Source: Synergistaceae bacterium
GTDB taxonomy: Bacteria; Synergistota; Synergistia; Synergistales; Aminobacteriaceae
Length of the DNA: 64,000 nucleotides
Direction: 5' to 3'
Assembly: GCA_017470485.1 (NCBI GenBank)
Contig: JAFUYQ010000005.1
Coordinates: 1-64,000, forward strand
Under the pieces are notes generated by a model. That model had not been told where the DNA came from. It was given only the letters and a program-made list of their open reading frames with translations, and made no database searches. The position numbers and the translations under genes were made by a program. Positions 19,704 through 57,742 of the stretch are shown piece after piece (within the stretch, counting starts at the first letter, position 1; every line of letters begins with the position of its first letter).

Positions 19704-19813
19704 TATGATTCACGTCCTTAACGCTAAATTTTTTTGTGTTTACTTTGAAATTATACACGCTAAATTTTCAGGCATTATATAATTTTCCTAAAGAGGAGGT
19801 AAGAAAACTTAAC

Positions 19814-21358
19814 ATGAAAACTATAAACCAGAATATTGTCATCATTAACTGCGGTTCACAGTTCACACAGTTAATTGCGAGAAGACTAAGGGAAATGAAA
19901 ATTCACAGCGTCATTCTCAACTGGGACTCATCGCCTGAGAAAATCAAGTCATATTCCCCCAAAGGCCTGATTATTTCAGGAGGCCCCGACAGCGTTAATG
20001 ACCCTGACGCTATCACTGTTGACCCTGAGATTCTTAACACCGGCTGTCCCGTACTGGGTATCTGCTACGGTATGCAGCTCCTCGCGAAACTTACCGGCGG
20101 TACTGTTACAGCAGGGACTTCAAGAGAATACGGGGTAACTAAGATTCAAAAGACCGGTAATGACTCATTACTTCTCGGCGAGAATATACCCCAGTCAATG
20201 AATGTCTTAATGAGTCACGGCGATAACGTCTCGGAACTTCCCGAAGGCTTCAAAGCTACATCGCTCACCGACAGCCACATCATCTCATCAATCGAGGACA
20301 CTCAGCGGAAATTCTTCGGTCTTCAGTTCCACCCCGAAGTGATTCACACCGAACACGGGAATTATATTCTGAGGAGTTTTGTCTTCAAGGTCTGCGGCTG
20401 TTCAGGGGACTGGAATCTTTCCGACTGGGTTGACGGAATGACCGCCTCAATACGCGAGACTGTGGGAAGCTCTAAGGTCGTCTGCGGTTTGTCGGGGGGA
20501 GTTGATTCGAGCGTCTCAGCCGTACTCGTTCACAGGGCTGTCGGCGATAACCTTCAGTGCGTTTTCGTCAATCACGGCTTAATGCGCCTCAATGAACCCG
20601 AAGCCGTCATGAAGGAATATGACTCTCTCGGCCTCAACGTAAAGTATGTTGACGCTTCCGAATTATTCCTGAAGGAACTCGCAGGAGTTACAGACCCAGA
20701 ACAGAAACGAAAGATTATAGGACGATTATTCATTGATGTCTTCGAGGCCGAAGCGAAGAAAATTGAAGGTGCTGAATGGCTATTGCAGGGAACTATTTAT
20801 CCTGACGTTATCGAGAGCGGCACAAAGAAAGGTTCTGCGCTCATAAAATCTCATCACAACGTCGGCGGACTTCCCGAAAAAATGAACCTCAAACTCCTTG
20901 AGCCTCTCCGCGATTTGTTCAAAGACGAAGTGAGAAGGCTCGGACGAATCATCGGAATGCCTGACGAAATCATTAACCGCCAGCCGTTTCCCGGTCCCGG
21001 CCTTGCGGTGAGGTGTCTTGGCGAAATCACTAAGGATAGACTTGATACTTTGAGGGCAGCCGATGCAATTTTCAGGGAGGAACTGAAGAGCGCAGGTCTT
21101 TATGCTGGAATTTGGCAGGCTTTCTGCGTACTTCTTCCGGTGAAATCAGTCGGCGTTATGGGGGACAGCAGAACTTACAGCGAGGCGGTCGTTCTAAGGG
21201 CGATAAACTCTCAGGACGCTATGACTGCTGAATGGTCGAGGATTGATTATGACGTTCTCGACAGGGTGTCTAAGAGAATCTGCAACGAGGTCAGAGGCAT
21301 TAACAGAGTGGTACTAGATGTAACTTCAAAGCCGCCCGCAACTATCGAATGGGAGTAA
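19814..21358 (+). CDS. guaA: GMP synthase (glutamine-hydrolysing)
   Basis: 514 residues from the ATG at 19814 (AGGAGG at 19794-19799, a rather long spacing). The glutaminase domain has the Cys in VLGICYGMQLLAKL and the His-Glu pair in FGLQFHPEVIHTEHG. The ATP-pyrophosphatase P-loop is VCGLSGGVDSSVSAVL. The C-terminal dimer domain ends VLDVTSKPPATIEWE, the family's typical finish. It converts XMP to GMP. No guanine-type riboswitch was seen in the short leader. Confidence 0.97.
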   Translation: MKTINQNIVIINCGSQFTQLIARRLREMKIHSVILNWDSSPEKIKSYSPKGLIISGGPDSVNDPDAITVDPEILNTGCPVLGICYGMQLLAKLTGGTVTAGTSREYGVTKIQKTGNDSLLLGENIPQSMNVLMSHGDNVSELPEGFKATSLTDSHIISSIEDTQRKFFGLQFHPEVIHTEHGNYILRSFVFKVCGCSGDWNLSDWVDGMTASIRETVGSSKVVCGLSGGVDSSVSAVLVHRAVGDNLQCVFVNHGLMRLNEPEAVMKEYDSLGLNVKYVDASELFLKELAGVTDPEQKRKIIGRLFIDVFEAEAKKIEGAEWLLQGTIYPDVIESGTKKGSALIKSHHNVGGLPEKMNLKLLEPLRDLFKDEVRRLGRIIGMPDEIINRQPFPGPGLAVRCLGEITKDRLDTLRAADAIFREELKSAGLYAGIWQAFCVLLPVKSVGVMGDSRTYSEAVVLRAINSQDAMTAEWSRIDYDVLDRVSKRICNEVRGINRVVLDVTSKPPATIEWE

Positions 21359-21366
21359 AACGCAGG

Positions 21367-21387
21367 AGGGGAGTCCTTTCCTCCCCT
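21367..21387. terminator. Weak hairpin between guaA and the BrxL-like gene
   Basis: AGGGGAG / CTCCCCT stem, 7-nt loop, between two converging stop codons. There is no T-run, so its role as terminator is uncertain. Confidence 0.35.
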
Positions 21388-22814
21388 TACTCCCTGACGG
21401 TGAAGTCAGGCATTCCCCTGCCCTTGTACTCAGAATCGAGAAGTCCGGCCTGATAACGTATAATCTCCCTCATTCTCTCAGCGCGGCTAAGGCAGTAGCG
21501 TTTGAAATCCTGCGCCGAAATATCATCGGGCTTTCTTACGTTCGGGAAAAGAAGTTTCAGGTAAGCTGTTGAGATTCTTTTAACGGCTTCGGTGTCTCTG
21601 GTATCAGAGCCTTTCGGAACATCGACAAGTTCATCGACTATTCCCCTGTAGGAAATATCATCTCTGAGTTCATGAAGCACTGAGCAGAAATACTCGGTGT
21701 TCAATGCCCAGCCCTGAATCTTCAAGTCATCGTTCATTCTAGGAATGTTCCAGCCCCTCAGAAAACCGTGAAATCTCTCAATCAATGCCGACTCGTGAAA
21801 CACCTTCGGCAATTCCGTGAACATGTCCGCGTAACCGTCCTGTTTCATCGCCTCAATGCTTATGTTTCCGCACAGCACTAATCCTGCGTCAGCAGTACCC
21901 TTGTAGCTTCCGACTGTGAAAACTCCCTGCTCTAAGTAGCCTTTCAGAGCCGCGCGCATTTCGTCAGTGTTCCCGAATGAGATAGTCTGAATTTCGTCGA
22001 GGACAACGAAGTCATTGCCGGTGATTAATCCCTCGCAGTTCTTCGTTAGGTCATAGAACATTTTTGAACGGGTCATTACTCCTCCGCTCGATAACCAGCC
22101 GTAACGGCTTACGTTCCCGAAAACATAGCTTTTCCCTGTTCCTTTGGGTGCAAGCTCGATGATGTTGAGTCTTTTCTCGGCGAAGGTAAGAAGCCTCGTG
22201 AGCATTGAGAGTTTCCGCTCCTCGTCCCTGTAGCCCTCAGCGTTGTAGTCGATCGCTCCGAGCAATATATCTTCCCATTCATAAATATTGAACTCCGAAC
22301 GCGCCTCGCGGTAATCATCAGTGCTTACGGTGTAGGGGCAGAACGTCTCGAAGCTGACAAGCTCAATCCGTCCCTGATTTTTGCCTTCGGACAGTCTGTA
22401 GCCGAGTTCGATTATTCCCCAGACTTCACGGCCTGCGGATAATTCACGGCTGTATTTCTGCCATGTCGAACGCTCGATGAATGTTTCCTTGCCCGTCAAT
22501 CCGAATGCCGGAATGCTGAACGTTATTTCCTGAGTTTTGATGTCAATATCGGCGGAGATTTTAGCGAGGAATTTTACCCTTTCGCCCTCAAGAATGATTC
22601 TGTTCTTGAGACTTATCCATTCGTTGCGGTCAGGAATGAAATTCTGAGTGAAGTCTTTGATTTTGCCGATGTCATAGTTTCCCTCACCGTCAGAAAATTT
22701 CTGTATTATCCAGTCCCTCATGAATGCCGGAAGACTTAATGCCGTGAAAAAATTTGTCCTCCTCAAATCCTTATAGACCGCTATGTCTCCGAATACACTT
22801 TTGATTTTGCACAC
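21387..22814 (-). CDS. Stand-alone BrxL-type AAA+ ATPase without Lon protease domain
   Basis: 475 residues, GTG start with GGGGTG upstream. The AAA+ core closely follows BREX protein BrxL (TIGR02688 family): Walker A APKGTGKS (222-229), a LSSGGVMTRSKMFYDL block, Walker B FVVLDEIQTISF (269-), LCGNIS sensor with Asn317, and FHESALIERFHGFLRGWNIP with the putative Arg finger (Arg347). The N-terminal 200 residues match the BrxL front domain in layout. Full BrxL is some 680 residues with a Lon-type peptidase domain; here the chain stops after the helical lid, so it is ATPase only. No brxA, brxB, brxC, pglX or pglZ gene is near; neighbours are guaA and a decarboxylase subunit. BrxL binds DNA in phage defence; function here is open. 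Confidence 0.8.
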   Translation of the reverse strand: MCKIKSVFGDIAVYKDLRRTNFFTALSLPAFMRDWIIQKFSDGEGNYDIGKIKDFTQNFIPDRNEWISLKNRIILEGERVKFLAKISADIDIKTQEITFSIPAFGLTGKETFIERSTWQKYSRELSAGREVWGIIELGYRLSEGKNQGRIELVSFETFCPYTVSTDDYREARSEFNIYEWEDILLGAIDYNAEGYRDEERKLSMLTRLLTFAEKRLNIIELAPKGTGKSYVFGNVSRYGWLSSGGVMTRSKMFYDLTKNCEGLITGNDFVVLDEIQTISFGNTDEMRAALKGYLEQGVFTVGSYKGTADAGLVLCGNISIEAMKQDGYADMFTELPKVFHESALIERFHGFLRGWNIPRMNDDLKIQGWALNTEYFCSVLHELRDDISYRGIVDELVDVPKGSDTRDTEAVKRISTAYLKLLFPNVRKPDDISAQDFKRYCLSRAERMREIIRYQAGLLDSEYKGRGMPDFTVRE

Positions 22815-22836
22815 CCTTAATCACCCCATAAAAACA

Positions 22837-22872
22837 GCCGGAAGACTCTAATCTCAAAAAGAATCTTCCGGC
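22837..22872 (-). terminator. Terminator of the decarboxylase beta-subunit gene
   Basis: Nine-base perfect stem (GCCGGAAGA / TCTTCCGGC), 18-nt loop, followed on the minus strand by TGTTTTTATG. It isolates the BrxL-like gene from the gene upstream. Confidence 0.85.
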
Positions 22873-22901
22873 CATGTTCAGACTGTTTCAGTAAATTTCT
22901 T

Positions 22902-24074
22902 TTAGCGCGATAAAAGCGTAAGCATTACTCCTGCCGCTACCGCCGTGCCGATAACTCCGGCAACGTTCGGGCCCATAGCGTGCATGAGAAGGAAATGTCC
23001 GGGATATTCCTTCTGGACGCAACGCTGAACTACCCTCGCCGCCATAGGTACTGCGCTGACTCCTGCGGCACCTATCATCGGGTTAATCTTTCCGCCAGAA
23101 AGTATCTTCATTATCTGACCGAATACGAGTCCTCCGAACGTGCTGAACGCGAACGCTACGAGTCCCAAGCAGATTATGGCAAGCGTTCCGACAGTCAAGA
23201 ACTTATCGGCGGCCATCGTTGAACCTACTGAGAGCGCAAGGAAAATCGTTACGATGTTCATGAGTTCGTTCTGAGCGGTATTGCTGAGACGGTCAGTAAC
23301 TCCGCATTCCCTGAGAAGGTTTCCGAACATTAACGTTCCGACAAGCGGCACGCACGCAGGAAGTATTAATCCAGAAACGACCGTGCAGATAATCGGGAAT
23401 AAAATCTTCTCGCGCTTCGAGACTGGACGGAGCTGACCCATGATAATGCCTCTGTCCTTTTTGCTGGTCATCATGTAGATAACAGGAGGCTGAATCATCG
23501 GGACTAATGACATGTAGCTGTAAGCCGCTACTGCTACCGCTCCGAGAATCTGAGTCTGTCCGAGCATGACCGTCAGGTAAATGCTTGTAGGGCCGTCAGC
23601 TCCTCCGATGATGGCGATACTTGCGGCCTCTTTGATGTTGAATGAGACGAGGCCGTTAGTGAGAGTTCCGAGCCAGTTAGCACCGATGAACGCAACGAAA
23701 ACTCCGAACTGTGCCGCCGCTCCGAGAAGGAACGTTATCGGGTTGGCGATGAGGGGAGCGAAGTCGGTCATTGCGCCGATGCCCAAGAAAATCAATATCG
23801 GGTAAATCTCGAACTCTGCACCGTAATACAGTGAGCGCAGGAAGCCTATCGTGTGAGTAGTCTCGTTGAACTCGTCCCAAATTCCTGAGAGGGGCAAATT
23901 CACGAGGAGGCACCCGAAAGCAATCGGCACGAGCAAGAGGGGTTCAAACCCTTTGCCGATGGCCAGATAAAGAAGGACGAACGACACTACGAGCATGATG
24001 ATGTTGCCGGTAGTGAGGCCGAAGAAGCCTGACTTGAGCATTAAATCCTGTAATGCTGTCAAATACATCTCCAT
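22902..24074 (-). CDS. Sodium-translocating decarboxylase, beta subunit (OadB/GcdB/MmdB family)
   Basis: About 390 residues, very hydrophobic, with around ten membrane segments. Conserved blocks are PILIFLGIGAMTDFAPLIANP, LGAAAQFGVFVAF and AIIGGADGPTSIYL, the last being the family's Na+-path signature. The beta subunit couples decarboxylation of a biotin-bound carboxyl group to Na+ export. The carboxyltransferase, biotin and gamma subunits are not in the window, so the substrate (oxaloacetate, methylmalonyl-CoA, glutaconyl-CoA) cannot be named. I prefer the ATG at 24074; a TTG at 24086 would sit too close to AAAGGA. Monocistronic, with its own terminator. Confidence 0.92.
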   Translation of the reverse strand: MEMYLTALQDLMLKSGFFGLTTGNIIMLVVSFVLLYLAIGKGFEPLLLVPIAFGCLLVNLPLSGIWDEFNETTHTIGFLRSLYYGAEFEIYPILIFLGIGAMTDFAPLIANPITFLLGAAAQFGVFVAFIGANWLGTLTNGLVSFNIKEAASIAIIGGADGPTSIYLTVMLGQTQILGAVAVAAYSYMSLVPMIQPPVIYMMTSKKDRGIIMGQLRPVSKREKILFPIICTVVSGLILPACVPLVGTLMFGNLLRECGVTDRLSNTAQNELMNIVTIFLALSVGSTMAADKFLTVGTLAIICLGLVAFAFSTFGGLVFGQIMKILSGGKINPMIGAAGVSAVPMAARVVQRCVQKEYPGHFLLMHAMGPNVAGVIGTAVAAGVMLTLLSR

Positions 24075-24189
24075 ACTATGAATCAAATCCTTTCGTGAAA
24101 AATAAATAAGTGAAAATAATTTTGTTACTGCAATTTATATCACAGAGTTCAACACTTTTGCAAATGAAAACGTTATAAGCCTCATGTTC

Positions 24190-25761: not shown

Positions 25762-27072
25762 GAAAAGTACCTAACAATCAAGCAGCGGTTAAAGCACCTG
25801 TCAAAAGAAGAATATCGAACTCTTCGTGAATTGTGCCGAACTTCTAAGAACTTAATGAACGAGGCACTTTACGTGAACAGACAGTATTTTTTTACTGAAG
25901 GCAAATATTTGGGCTACGAGAAAACATACGCGATATTGAAAACATCAGAGAACTATAAAAGCCTGAACTCGAATATGGCGCAACAAAGCATGAAGGTTGT
26001 TGACACTATGTTTGCGTCATTCATTGCGCTGTTAAAGCTGGTAAAGAAAAAGCAGTACGACAGCAGAGCCGTAAAAATTCCTCATTACCTGCCCAAAGAC
26101 GGATACGCTCCGCTGATAATACAGCAGTTCACGATACGCGACCAGACATTCACGCTGCCATATTCAAAGCAATACGGAGCGAGGCATTCAAAACTTACTG
26201 TAAAAGTGCCGCCTATACTTGAAGACAAGAAAGTCAAGTACATACGAATAATCCCGATAAATGACGCTAGGTTCTTTGAGATACAGTACGTTTATGAAGC
26301 GGTAGAAGCTCAAAGGGAATTAGACAAGCAAAAAGCACTAGCGATAGATTTCGGATTGAACAATTTAATGACGTGCGTAACAAGTGAAGGGCAATCGTTC
26401 ATCATTGACGGTCGGAGACTGAAAGCGATAAATCAATGGTTCAACAAAATGAACGCAAGGCTTTCGAGCATAAAAGACAAGCAGAAATGCAGTAGAAAAA
26501 CGACATTCCGGCAGAGACAGCTCGCGAGAAAACGTAAACTGCGAGTGAATGACTATATCTCTAAAGCGTGCAGGAAAGTCATAAACTACTGCGTTTTTCA
26601 CAATATCGGGGTATTAGTTTGCGGATATAACGTAACATTCCAGAGAGAGGCAAAGATGGGGAAAGTGAACAACCAAAATTTTGTGAATATCCCCTACGGA
26701 GAAATCCTACATAAATTAGCGTATCTCTGCGAACTGTACGGAATTGAATACGCAGAACAGGAAGAAAGCTATACGTCAAAGGCAAGTTTTTGGGACAAAG
26801 ACGAAATGCCGGTGTATAATGCGGACAATCTGAAGGATTATGAATTTTCCGGCAAGCGGATACATAGAGGAATGTACCAGACAAGCACAGGTTTTGAGTT
26901 CAATGCAGATGTAAACGGAGCGTTGAACATTCTCAGAAAAAGTAATGTTGTGTCCCTTTTGGGGCTATACAGTAGGGGCGGACTGGCTACGCCCTTAAGA
27001 ATAAGGATTGGGAAACAATCAAACTTCTTAAGAACCCTCTGCCCTTTAGGCAGGAGGAGGCTCAGCTGTTAG
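25762..27072 (+). pseudogene. TnpB, variant active site, start codon apparently lost
   Basis: Family-type sequence begins at 25762 (KYLTIKQRLKHLSKEEYRTL), just after a good AAAGGAGGTGAG, but this frame has a TAA at 25759-25761 and no ATG/GTG until much later; the first usual start is TTG at 25831 (413 residues, missing the first helix). One or two bases may have been lost or gained. Counting from 25831: RuvC-I Asp173 (LAIDFGLNNL) and RuvC-III Asp360 (NADVNGALNI) are present. The usual Glu motif is replaced by VLVCGYN; Glu273 or Glu310-312 (EQEESYTS) might substitute, as in rearranged-site TnpBs. No CxxC zinc finger; Cys is Ala in YTSKASF. No tnpA. Likely decaying or repurposed. Confidence 0.8.
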
Positions 27073-53935: not shown

Positions 53936-56900
53936 TTATGCCTGATGAGATGTTTTTCGTTTCACGATTGAGCCGGCAATCCCGAACAGGAGAATCACCG
54001 CTCCAACGCCCGAATTGCACCCTCCCTGAGAGCGGGTCTCAGCGGCAATCACAGGGCTGTATGTCCGTCCGGCGGTGAAGTCAGCCGATACCCTCACGGT
54101 GTCCGCCCCGTCAGTCAGAGCGAATGAGGCGTTGAGGTCTTCAGAGTCCGAGAGGAGGAGAAGGGACGAGTCCTCAGGGGGAGTCCTGTCGAGCGAGACG
54201 GTGAAGGAGTATGTTCCTGACTCATCGGGGGTGAAGGACGGGAGGACAGCGAGAATCGTTGAGGCTGAGTCGGAACGGGTGAGGGCGGAGGCTGATGAGT
54301 TTGTGGAGGCTGGCCAGATGACTGTTACTTCGCCATCACAGTTGACATTCCAAATGTTGAGATTAGGGCAGTTGCTCAAGTCTAGCGTTGTAAGCTGATT
54401 ATTGGTGCAATACAATGCTTGCAGGGCTGTATTATTGCTAAGGTCTAAGGTCGTCAGATTGTTGTAGTCGCATTTCAAATGTTGCAGAGCAGTACAGCCG
54501 CTAACGTCTAAGGCAGTCAGCTGGTTTTCGCCACATTGCAACGTTTGCAGAGCAGTACAGCCGCTAACGTCTAAGGCAGTCAAATGGTTTTCGCCGCAGG
54601 CCAACACTACCAGAGCAGTACAGCTACTAACGTCTAAAGCCGTCAGCTGGTTGAAGGAGCACTCCAAACTGTCTAGAGCAGTACAGCCACTAACATCTAA
54701 GGCCGTCAGCTGGTTTTCGCCGCAGTACAAGTATTGCAGAGCAATACAGCCACTAACGTCTAAGGCCGTCAGTTGGTTGTTGAAGCACTCCAAACTGTTC
54801 AGAGCAGTACAGCCACTAACATCTAAGGCCGTCAGCCGGTTGTTATAGCATTGCAACATTTGCAGAGCGGTGAAATACTCCACGCCCTGAAGTGAGGAAA
54901 TTCCTGAGTATGATACGTTTATCTCGGTTACATTTGCGATTTCTGCCTTGCTCAATGTGCTGTCAGAATTTGTGTCAAACCGCCTCACGTATTCACGGAA
55001 AACTGCGTCAGGGAAGTGGGGTTCATCAATCGGAATGTCATCAACCTGCTCATCACTTCCTTCCTCCATATACCAGTCCTGACCGGTTGTATTTCCGCTG
55101 ACAATTACGTTGAAGGTGGCTGTCTTGTAGCCGGATTTTTTCAGCTCTACGGTGTAATATCCTGTTCCAAAATCTTCGAGCGAGTACTGTCCATTGTTGT
55201 CAGTAGATGTTACGTCATATTCTTCCTCTTCTTGGCTGTTCCAGCCTGTTTTTACGACAACTCTCACATTCTCGAGAGGGGAATCATCAGAAGCACTCCG
55301 AATAATTCCGCTCAAAGAACCGTAGCCGGATCTTACAAGCTGAATGTCAAGTGAAGTATTCATAGACGCTCTTATATCCACACTGTATATATCTGCTTTG
55401 CTGTATCCTTCAGCAGTTACCCAGACGTAACACTTGCCGCTTTCATTGTATAGCTGTCCTAAATATTTCCCCTTTTTATCTGTCGTTAGATACCTCTTGT
55501 GAAAATAGGAGCTGGAAGAAAATTCAAGAGTTACAGAAGCCTCTGCTACAGGTTCTTTTGTAGCATAATCCGTAACAGTACCGCTCAAAGAGGCTGGACT
55601 ATAAAACACTTCAGCGATGGCGTTATAGACACAGGACAATTTTTCACGCGGAAGTTCGCCGGCTTCAGCAAGTTTTTCTGCAGCCCACCTTATACACCAA
55701 TGCACCACCTCAAAAGTCGCGTCTTTGTTCAGAGCTTTCTTTTCTTCCGTCCACCAAAGAACTCGATACGGATAGCCCATGCTCATGGATTTATACCAGA
55801 CTTTCGCTAATTCATCCCATGTGAGGCCGTTTTTGTGCATGAGGTATGCCAAGTACGAAACGTAATGTACGCTGTCTATGTACGCGTCTGTTCCGTTTCC
55901 CGTGTATCTTGTTTCAATGTTCCTTACACAGCTTTCAGGGCCGCTTGAAGAGAATAAATCCTCGCCAATTTTCCAGTTCTTGTCTTTTATGCAGGCAAAT
56001 ACATCTGCATAGCCTTCAGATATTGATCTTAGAGGACTCTCTTTGCCCCAGTCTTTGAAGCCTGTGGTGTAACTGAGTACAGCATGTGCGCTTTCGTGCG
56101 TAAGTACATCAATGGCTGAAGCTGTCGAAGTTATGTACTCGTTCCCTTTATCAGAAATATACATTCTATTCCATTTTCCATAAGCCCAAGCAGCATTATC
56201 TTTTGCAATATTTCCAATCTCATCAGTAATAACTTTTTGATGCGCTACAATTTGTACTGTCATTCCCTTATCATCAAGAGAATTTCTGCCGAATGTGTCC
56301 CGCCACCAGCGCAGAATTTCACGCATATTAGTGTACGCTGAGACTGCCTGACTATCCCAGTCTTTTGTCTCCTCGCTAGGTTTGCGCTTTATGATATTGG
56401 ACGTTTCCCACCATAAAGCCCCTGAAGACACATCACCTGAATAAATCTCGATTGTAGGCTCTTCAGTGTCATCAATCATGTTCCAGTAACCGTTTGACAA
56501 TTTAATCGGGAATGATACATCTTTGCTGAGTTCATTTTTGCTGGTTACTTTTTTTGTTGTAGCTATGCTGTGATGAGCCTCATTGATGTTCGGGGATTTC
56601 CAGATTATTGCGCCCGTAGCGGCATTGACGAAAACTGTTTCATCGACATATTCGCCCTCCCCGTCAGTACCTGATACACTCACAATATAGGCATAGACAG
56701 GGTTATTCTCGTATTCCCTGAGCGCGAAGATTATCAGTTCGGTATCTGCTGAAGTAGCCTCAACGCTTCCTGAGTAATAACTAACTACCGCGCTTTCAGC
56801 CTCAGATGAGGTGTGCAGTCTAAGCGTGGAGCGGTCGAGTTTTGCAAGTAAGTCAGAAGACAAAATATTGGCGTGAAGGAAATCACCTTTGCCCTCCGAA

Positions 56901-57742
56901 TTTGCGGAAGCCATTATGCCGTAACCGTAAACTCTCACTCCGTTATAGACCTGCTGGAACTGGTATTCAGCTCCCGAATTGTCAGACGTAACGACAGACG
57001 TTTGAAGCTCGTTATAAGGATTATTGATACCTAAAGCCTCATGAATCCCCTGTATTGCGTCGAGAGCGTCATCTGCGTTATGGATTGTGATTCTGCTGTA
57101 GTTCCCCTCAATGTCAGCAATTTGATCTGATGAAAGCTCATATATTATGCTGAAGTCTCTACTAACTAGGTCATTAACCTTGAAAACAGGTATATCACTG
57201 CTGACTCTCGAACGCGCACGGATAACTTTGACATTGAATGTCCTGCTTACTGACTGAGAGCCGCTTAACACCGTAGCTGTCAATGTTACGTCAACGTCTT
57301 CAGTTTGTCTTGTTACAGTTCCGTCTGTCGCTACCGCCTCAGAACTGCTTAACCATGAAATATCCGAGCTTCCGATTTTCGTTGGGAGCGTGAGGTTCTG
57401 AGTAACGTACTTTGGGTTATCGCCCATCGAGTAGCCTATGACGACTTCGCTCAATGCGTATTCGGCTGCTGACGTGTCAGGGTCAGGAGTCGGGGTGGGG
57501 GTAGGAGTTGGAGTCGGAGTCGGACTCGGAGTTGGAGTCGGGTCAGGGGAGATTATCGGTGTTGGTGTTGGGGTGGGTGTGGGCGTCGGTGTGGGGTCAG
57601 GCGAGACTATGGGTGTCGGTGTTGGTGTCGGCTGGAAGCCTTGCTGAACAGAACCGCCGCTTCCTCCGCAGCCTCCCGTGAACACCATAGCCGCGAACAG
57701 TGTCATCACTATGAGTAGCGCGTGAAACTTTTTGCCAGCCAT
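53936..57742 (-). CDS. Giant exported M4-type metalloprotease with CarboxypepD_reg and LRR domains, Synergist-CTERM
   Basis: 1268 residues. Signal peptide with a Cys at 25 (FTGGCGG), a possible lipid site. Residues 38-88 are Thr-Pro repeats; about 95-175 a BIG-like domain; about 200-395 an FTP/PepSY propeptide; about 400-720 the M4 peptidase with zinc motif HESAH (549-553) and third ligand Glu576 in SEGYAD. Two CarboxypepD_reg domains follow (about 735-905: [40 protein letters not shown]). Then an EF-hand-like cap ([20 protein letters not shown]), about ten leucine-rich repeats of 21 residues, a beta region, and [20 protein letters not shown] with a basic tail. It should be a surface protease with a binding arm. 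AGGAGG before the ATG. Confidence 0.9.
54375..54885. repeat. Coding tandem repeats (LRR units of about 63 bases)
   Basis: Units with the minus-strand sense of [20 protein letters not shown] return every 63 bases about ten times. Neighbouring units are very alike at DNA level, including third bases, so recent unit duplication or recombination is likely. Confidence 0.85.
57479..57650. repeat. Coding low-complexity (Thr-Pro)n linker
   Basis: Hexanucleotide-type repeats encoding TPTPTP with two inserted (I/V)(I/V)SPDP units. A stiff, extended spacer between the lipobox-like Cys and the first folded domain. Confidence 0.85.

What the first reader, a model, noticed from the sequence alone, without database searches (positions are those of the whole stretch)
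21387..22814. Lone BrxL-type AAA+ ATPase with no Lon domain and no BREX genes
Walker A, Walker B, sensor Asn and Arg-finger blocks match BrxL, but the chain ends before the peptidase domain and both neighbours are metabolic genes. Known BREX loci carry several genes. It may be a solo defence ATPase, a BREX remnant kept for another job, or part of a scattered system.
Basis: partly seen in the sequence, partly recalled or inferred. Interest (0 to 1): 0.65.

Follow-up and report, generated by a model that had tools for sequence, protein, structure and literature searches.

The report
Last survivor of type-4 BREX locus
This gene is the normal, complete BrxL protein of a sulphur-using (type 4) BREX phage-defence system whose other genes have been deleted from the same spot in the genome, and sequence evidence suggests that several related gut bacteria still keep this single leftover gene working for an unknown purpose.

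Summary
In detail: window 21387-22814 (minus strand, 475 aa) is a BrxL-family AAA+ ATPase with all motifs, alone between oadB and guaA. The missing Lon domain is not a truncation. Type-4 BREX BrxL proteins naturally end there, and this one matches their full-length models and aligns end to end with homologues that close type-4 operons. The host genome has no BrxC, PglZ, BrxP, operon-specific cysteine desulfurase or other operon partner, so a scattered system is not supported. A species of the same genus carries a near-complete type-4 BREX operon at exactly this oadB-guaA site. Others show graded erosion, from BrxP/PglZ fragments beside an intact BrxL, through solo BrxL in four species, to a relic without BrxL and a clean empty site. 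So it is a remnant of type-4 BREX. It is not visibly decaying: pairwise dN/dS among copies is 0.05-0.12, as for neighbouring guaA, with no substitution at 123 family-invariant positions. I infer continued purifying selection on BrxL alone, most likely as an ATP-driven DNA-encircling ring. What that ring does without its partners is unproven. The gene is an ordinary family member; the repeatedly spared solo state is the mildly novel part.

The parts
21387..22814 (-). brxL, type-4 BREX form, 475 aa, GTG start, intact
22398..22796 (-). BrxL N-terminal domain (residues 7-139), DNA-binding region in solved BrxL
   Evidence: Pfam PF20442; role from PMC10164562 and PMC12839542
21423..22364 (-). BrxL MCM-like AAA+ ATPase domain (residues 151-464)
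   Evidence: Pfam PF13337
22128..22148 (-). Walker A PKGTGKS (residues 223-229)
21993..22007 (-). Walker B VVLDE (residues 270-274); E274 aligns with the catalytic E280 of the solved BrxL
   Evidence: E280Q abolishes restriction in PMC10164562
21864..21875 (-). Sensor Asn block LCGN (residues 314-317)
21762..21779 (-). Arg-finger block ERFHGF (residues 346-351)
22815..22901 (-). 87-bp junction oadB/brxL: terminator-like hairpin, then a ribosome site. The position of the relatives' ATG reads AGG here and the next codon GTG is the start. The junction where c22-c7-BrxP-BrxC-PglZ stand in relatives
   Evidence: sequence read by eye; hairpin not listed by the scan, probably because of its long loop
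21367..21387 (-). Terminator-like hairpin after brxL; place where zinc-finger protein and cysteine desulfurase stand in relatives
   Evidence: 1 found, shuffles give 1.4, so weak alone
22902..24086 (-). oadB-like decarboxylase beta subunit, conserved left border of the site in the genus
19736..21358 (+). guaA, conserved right border of the site in the genus

Best explanation
The gene is the BrxL of a type-4 BREX operon (c7 - BrxP - BrxC - PglZ - BrxL - small zinc-finger protein - DndA-like cysteine desulfurase) that stood between oadB and guaA in an ancestor of this clade of gut Synergistaceae. Deletions on both sides removed every other gene here and left brxL as a one-gene unit. Shown: the operon in a congener at this same site, the graded relics, the absence of partners in this genome, the intact motifs, and the low dN/dS. 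Inferred: brxL is kept by selection, because the protein alone still does something useful. Most likely it assembles, like its solved relative, into an ATP-dependent ring that encircles DNA, and it impedes or remodels DNA (foreign replication forks or plasmids, or host DNA) without the self/non-self marking of full BREX. My confidences: origin as a type-4 BREX remnant 0.95; retained by purifying selection 0.8; acts on DNA as an ATP-driven ring 0.7; does so as a standalone anti-invader factor 0.35.
For: Type-4 identity: best PADLOC model PDLC02505, 482 positions, full length; homologues in six loci of other genera are the BrxL gene of BrxP-BrxC-PglZ-BrxL operons, with PglZ matching NCBIfam BREX_PglZ_4 at 447 bits against a 140-bit cut-off; NCBI itself calls the neighbouring gene 'BREX-4 system phosphatase PglZ' in Methanosphaera. 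Site: congener G003 has oadB - c7 - BrxP - BrxC - PglZ (N-terminal part) - BrxL - zinc finger - desulfurase - guaA. Erosion: G030 keeps a BrxP 1-67 fragment before intact BrxL; G004 keeps fragments of c7, BrxP and desulfurase but no BrxL; G006 has oadB and guaA directly adjacent. Tally in the same-genus genomes searched: intact BrxL 6, BrxP 1, BrxC 1, full PglZ 0. Selection: pairwise BrxL dN/dS 0.05-0.12 against 0.07-0.14 for guaA, with similar dS, so old vertical inheritance. The window copy has 0 changes at 123 positions invariant in the other 11; in simulation that leaves room for at most about 0.01 neutral changes per site, against roughly 0.75 synonymous changes per site on its branch (half of the pairwise dS). 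Solo and relic states interleave on the guaA tree; starred branches force at least two changes.
Against: No experiment that I found shows that any BrxL acts alone. In known type-1 BREX it restricts only with the other genes, and it is dispensable in Salmonella BREX (PMC12839542). If each solo state is very recent, the low dN/dS would mostly reflect earlier selection within intact BREX. One congener (G001) has a frameshifted copy and G004 has lost it, so the gene is dispensable. In the window copy the relatives' ATG is lost and the ribosome site looks weaker. Most genomes are draft metagenome bins.
Confidence: 0.75

Rival explanations
1. Dead or dying remnant: brxL is simply the last gene of a type-4 BREX operon still to be lost, with no present function.
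For: The locus clearly erodes in this clade: a frameshifted copy in G001, BrxL gone with other fragments left in G004, clean loss in G006. The relatives' start codon is replaced in the window.
Against: dN/dS near that of guaA in all pairs. No stop codons and no hit at invariant sites in the window copy. In at least two, probably three or four, separate reductions the same gene is the one left whole.
Confidence: 0.2
2. One part of a scattered type-4 BREX system, with partners encoded elsewhere in the genome.
For: The genome is only 86% complete, so partners could be missed.
Against: No BrxC, PglZ or c7 hit in the genome, no credible BrxP hit, and only a housekeeping-like desulfurase at 42% identity that nearly all relatives have. 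The 99-100% complete solo-BrxL relatives G010 and G031 also lack BrxC, PglZ and c7.
Confidence: 0.03
3. BrxL helps another resident defence or DNA-repair system in trans, replacing that system's helicase.
For: BrxL is a DNA-encircling MCM-like ATPase with no marking function of its own (PMC10164562). Other BREX types use unrelated helicases in place of BrxL (PMC12839542).
Against: No partner gene travels with it; the neighbours are housekeeping genes that are also adjacent in a genome without BrxL. No PAPS-reductase-type sulphur system was found in this genome.
Confidence: 0.2

Closest known systems
Type-4 BREX BrxL (TIGR02688 / PADLOC PDLC02505), e.g. Methanosphaera pNP174 and Thermomicrobium roseum plasmid loci
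   Same: Same length, domains, motifs and C-terminus; full-length match
   Different: Here it stands alone, without BrxP, BrxC, PglZ, zinc-finger protein or cysteine desulfurase
Acinetobacter type-1 BREX BrxL (PDB 8EMC/8EMH, PMC10164562)
   Same: N-terminal DNA-binding region plus MCM-like AAA+ core, Walker B Glu conserved
   Different: Has an extra inactive Lon-like C-terminal domain; sits in a complete type-1 operon
Solitary remnants of restriction systems (e.g. orphan methyltransferases)
   Same: One gene of a multi-gene defence system kept after loss of the rest (from general knowledge, not tested here)
   Different: Those keep the marking enzyme; here the ATPase/translocase is kept

Membership tests
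BrxL protein family (TIGR02688) | Score above the curated cut-off over the full model | tested here: met
   379 bits against 329, model positions 1-448 of 449
BrxL protein family (TIGR02688) | Walker A, Walker B, sensor Asn, Arg finger intact | tested here: met
Type-4 BrxL subgroup | No C-terminal Lon or HKD extension; C-terminus shared with type-4 operon copies | tested here: met
   subgroup trait from PMC12839542
Type-4 BREX system | BrxC ATPase present | tested here: not met
   no hit in own genome
Type-4 BREX system | PglZ present (reported in all analysed type-4 loci) | tested here: not met
   no hit in own genome with type-4 model or PF08665
Type-4 BREX system | PAPS reductase / DUF4007 (BrxP) present | tested here: not met
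   only a short match to positions 440-500, of the kind found in about half of all relatives, where BrxP carries its ferredoxin-like stretch
Type-4 BREX system | DNA phosphorothioate modification of the host | not testable with these tools
   Needs a chemical assay of the DNA
BrxL protein family (TIGR02688) | DNA-dependent ATPase forming hexamer/heptamer rings | not testable with these tools
   Inferred from the solved relative; my own AlphaFold model was too poor to use (mean pLDDT 53)

The most novel reading that the evidence does not exclude
A single BrxL ring, freed from BREX, is a self-sufficient and repeatedly selected one-gene function in this clade: either a minimal anti-phage/anti-plasmid factor that needs no DNA marking, or a domesticated DNA-handling machine of the host.
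Probability: 0.35. Interest if true: 0.65.

Novelty: new variant of a known kind. Interest (0 to 1): 0.42.

Why it matters
The role of BrxL in BREX is disputed: essential in some systems, dispensable in others, absent from types 2 and 3. Lineages that have thrown away everything except BrxL, yet appear to keep it under strong selection, give a natural test of whether BrxL has an activity of its own. The erosion series at one site also shows how a large defence operon is lost piece by piece.

Tried and rejected
Pfam PF08665 (PglZ), PF08747 (BrxB) and NF033441 (BrxC) on the own genome gave nothing, but these models fit other BREX types, so the test was repeated with type-4 models. A weak BrxP hit in G000 (3.7e-6) was rejected: it covers only positions 440-500, where similar short matches turn up in about half of all relatives and most control genomes. 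AlphaFold of BrxL with 12 sequences was poor (mean pLDDT 53.4) and was not used or fold-searched. Phage and viral-contig searches found no solo BrxL of the type-4 kind: the close hits MT835511 and MT835963 and the IMG/VR contig lie in type-4 BREX loci. Plasmid hits examined were complete or partial BREX loci, bar one uncharacterised locus. Whether G010 and G030 share one deletion or had two could not be settled: both keep a likely PglZ HGG-motif fragment, but with different left ends. Papers searched for solo, orphan or remnant BrxL: none of the titles, abstracts and passages seen describes this, though the library lacks most subscription journals.

Full report
What was checked. The reading frame at 21387-22814 is on the minus strand, 475 aa. 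It matches BrxL_N and BrxL_ATPase of Pfam, TIGR02688 above its curated cut-off, and best of all the PADLOC model PDLC02505 over its whole length (698 bits, residues 3-474). The closest solved protein is BrxL of a type-1 BREX (8EMC/8EMH), whose catalytic Walker B glutamate aligns with E274 here.

No Lon domain is normal. The protein ends where its relatives end (alignment A1).

What it came from. In other genera the same protein is the BrxL gene of an operon whose other members match BrxP (PAPS reductase plus DUF4007), type-4 BrxC and type-4 PglZ in PADLOC; PglZ also matches NCBIfam BREX_PglZ_4. A small zinc-finger protein and a DndA-like cysteine desulfurase follow BrxL in several loci, as reported for type-4 BREX. 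Annotated plasmids of Methanosphaera and Thermomicrobium show the same core order.

The same site in congeners. In G003, a species of the same genus, the stretch between oadB and guaA holds c7, BrxP, BrxC, the N-terminal part of PglZ, BrxL, the zinc-finger protein and the desulfurase. The stretch is split over two contigs whose ends fall within BrxC, so the join is inferred. In G030 the site holds an esterase, c7, a frameshifted BrxP N-terminal fragment, a probable PglZ fragment, intact BrxL, the zinc-finger protein and the desulfurase. G010, G029, G031 and the window genome have BrxL only. G001 has the esterase and a BrxL split by a frameshift near codon 277. G004 has pieces of c7, BrxP and desulfurase and no BrxL. 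G006 has oadB and guaA next to each other. The window gene is therefore what remains of a type-4 BREX operon.

No partners elsewhere. Type-4 BrxC, PglZ and c7 give no match in the window's genome; BrxP gives only a short match of a kind seen in about half of all relatives; the desulfurase search finds only a 42% housekeeping-like paralogue that nearly all relatives share. The genome is 86% complete, but the locus lies well inside an 82.6-kb contig with both borders intact, and the 99-100% complete solo relatives G010 and G031 lack BrxC, PglZ and c7 too.

Is it still used? Pairwise dN/dS between BrxL copies of the genus is 0.05-0.12, the same range as guaA (0.07-0.14) and below most values of the neighbouring subtilase (0.10-0.24). 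dS values of BrxL and guaA are similar, so the gene has descended with the chromosome. On the guaA tree all carriers fall in one clade of 11 (support 97/93), with solo, relic and empty states interleaved; starred branches force at least two changes of the solo state. The window copy differs from the other 11 at none of 123 invariant positions. Simulated neutral drift gives that result in about 5% of runs when only 0.01 changes per site have accumulated, against roughly 0.75 synonymous changes per site on its branch (half the saturated pairwise dS, so rough). Either the loss of the other genes is extremely recent, or selection on BrxL continued after it. Because several lineages show the same thing, I favour continued selection. 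This is an inference: the date of loss in the window lineage is not known, the independence of the losses is only partly resolved, and most of the data are from draft bins. In the window copy the relatives' ATG reads AGG and the next codon, GTG, serves as start, which may lower expression.

How it may work. The solved BrxL forms ATP-dependent rings that hold DNA in the central pore, with DNA-dependent ATPase; the Walker B mutant E280Q loses phage restriction (PMC10164562). BrxL is not needed for the marking of host DNA (PMC9122589). E. coli BrxL binds DNA without site preference (PMC11842806). A lone BrxL could therefore load on DNA and hinder its replication or move along it, but without the marking genes it could not tell host from phage by modification. 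That it does so, and on which DNA, is conjecture.

Novelty. The protein is an ordinary member of the type-4 BrxL family. The locus should not be called a BREX system, since three defining components were tested and are absent. What I did not find described in the searchable literature is repeated reduction of type-4 BREX to BrxL alone with signs of retained selection; I rate it a new variant of a known kind, of moderate interest.

Noticed in passing
L023:5826-7370, L062:5616-6986, L028:2-1444, L096:1922-3289: A 456-514 aa protein (called c7 here) is the gene just before BrxP in these type-4 BREX operons and matches nothing convincing in Pfam, PADLOC or NCBIfam; it may be an undescribed component.
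   Followed up: partly
L096 (MT835511.1, labelled Bacteriophage sp., human gut): A record filed as phage carries a whole type-4 BREX operon including zinc-finger protein and desulfurase; either a mobile element with its own BREX or bacterial DNA mislabelled.
   Followed up: partly
L028:1455-1610 and L026:664-1434: BrxP is reduced to about 52 N-terminal residues in the Ruminococcus locus and to its C-terminal DUF4007 part in the locus labelled Fusobacteriaceae, while BrxC, PglZ and BrxL stay whole.
   Followed up: no
L038:4884-5450 (G046): A genome with a complete type-4 BREX also carries a second, partial BrxL fragment on another contig.
   Followed up: no
G012:C65, G035:C4 (near guaA); G034:C226: The N-terminal ~140 residues of c7 recur in other reading frames of 273-384 aa without other BREX genes.
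   Followed up: no
window 25831-27072 (+): An IS605-type OrfB/TnpB gene lies beside sugar/capsule genes, 3 kb from brxL.
   Followed up: partly
window 53936-57742 (-): A 1268-aa protein combining a thermolysin-like domain, carboxypeptidase-regulatory-like domains and leucine-rich repeats, probably a surface or secreted protease.
   Followed up: no
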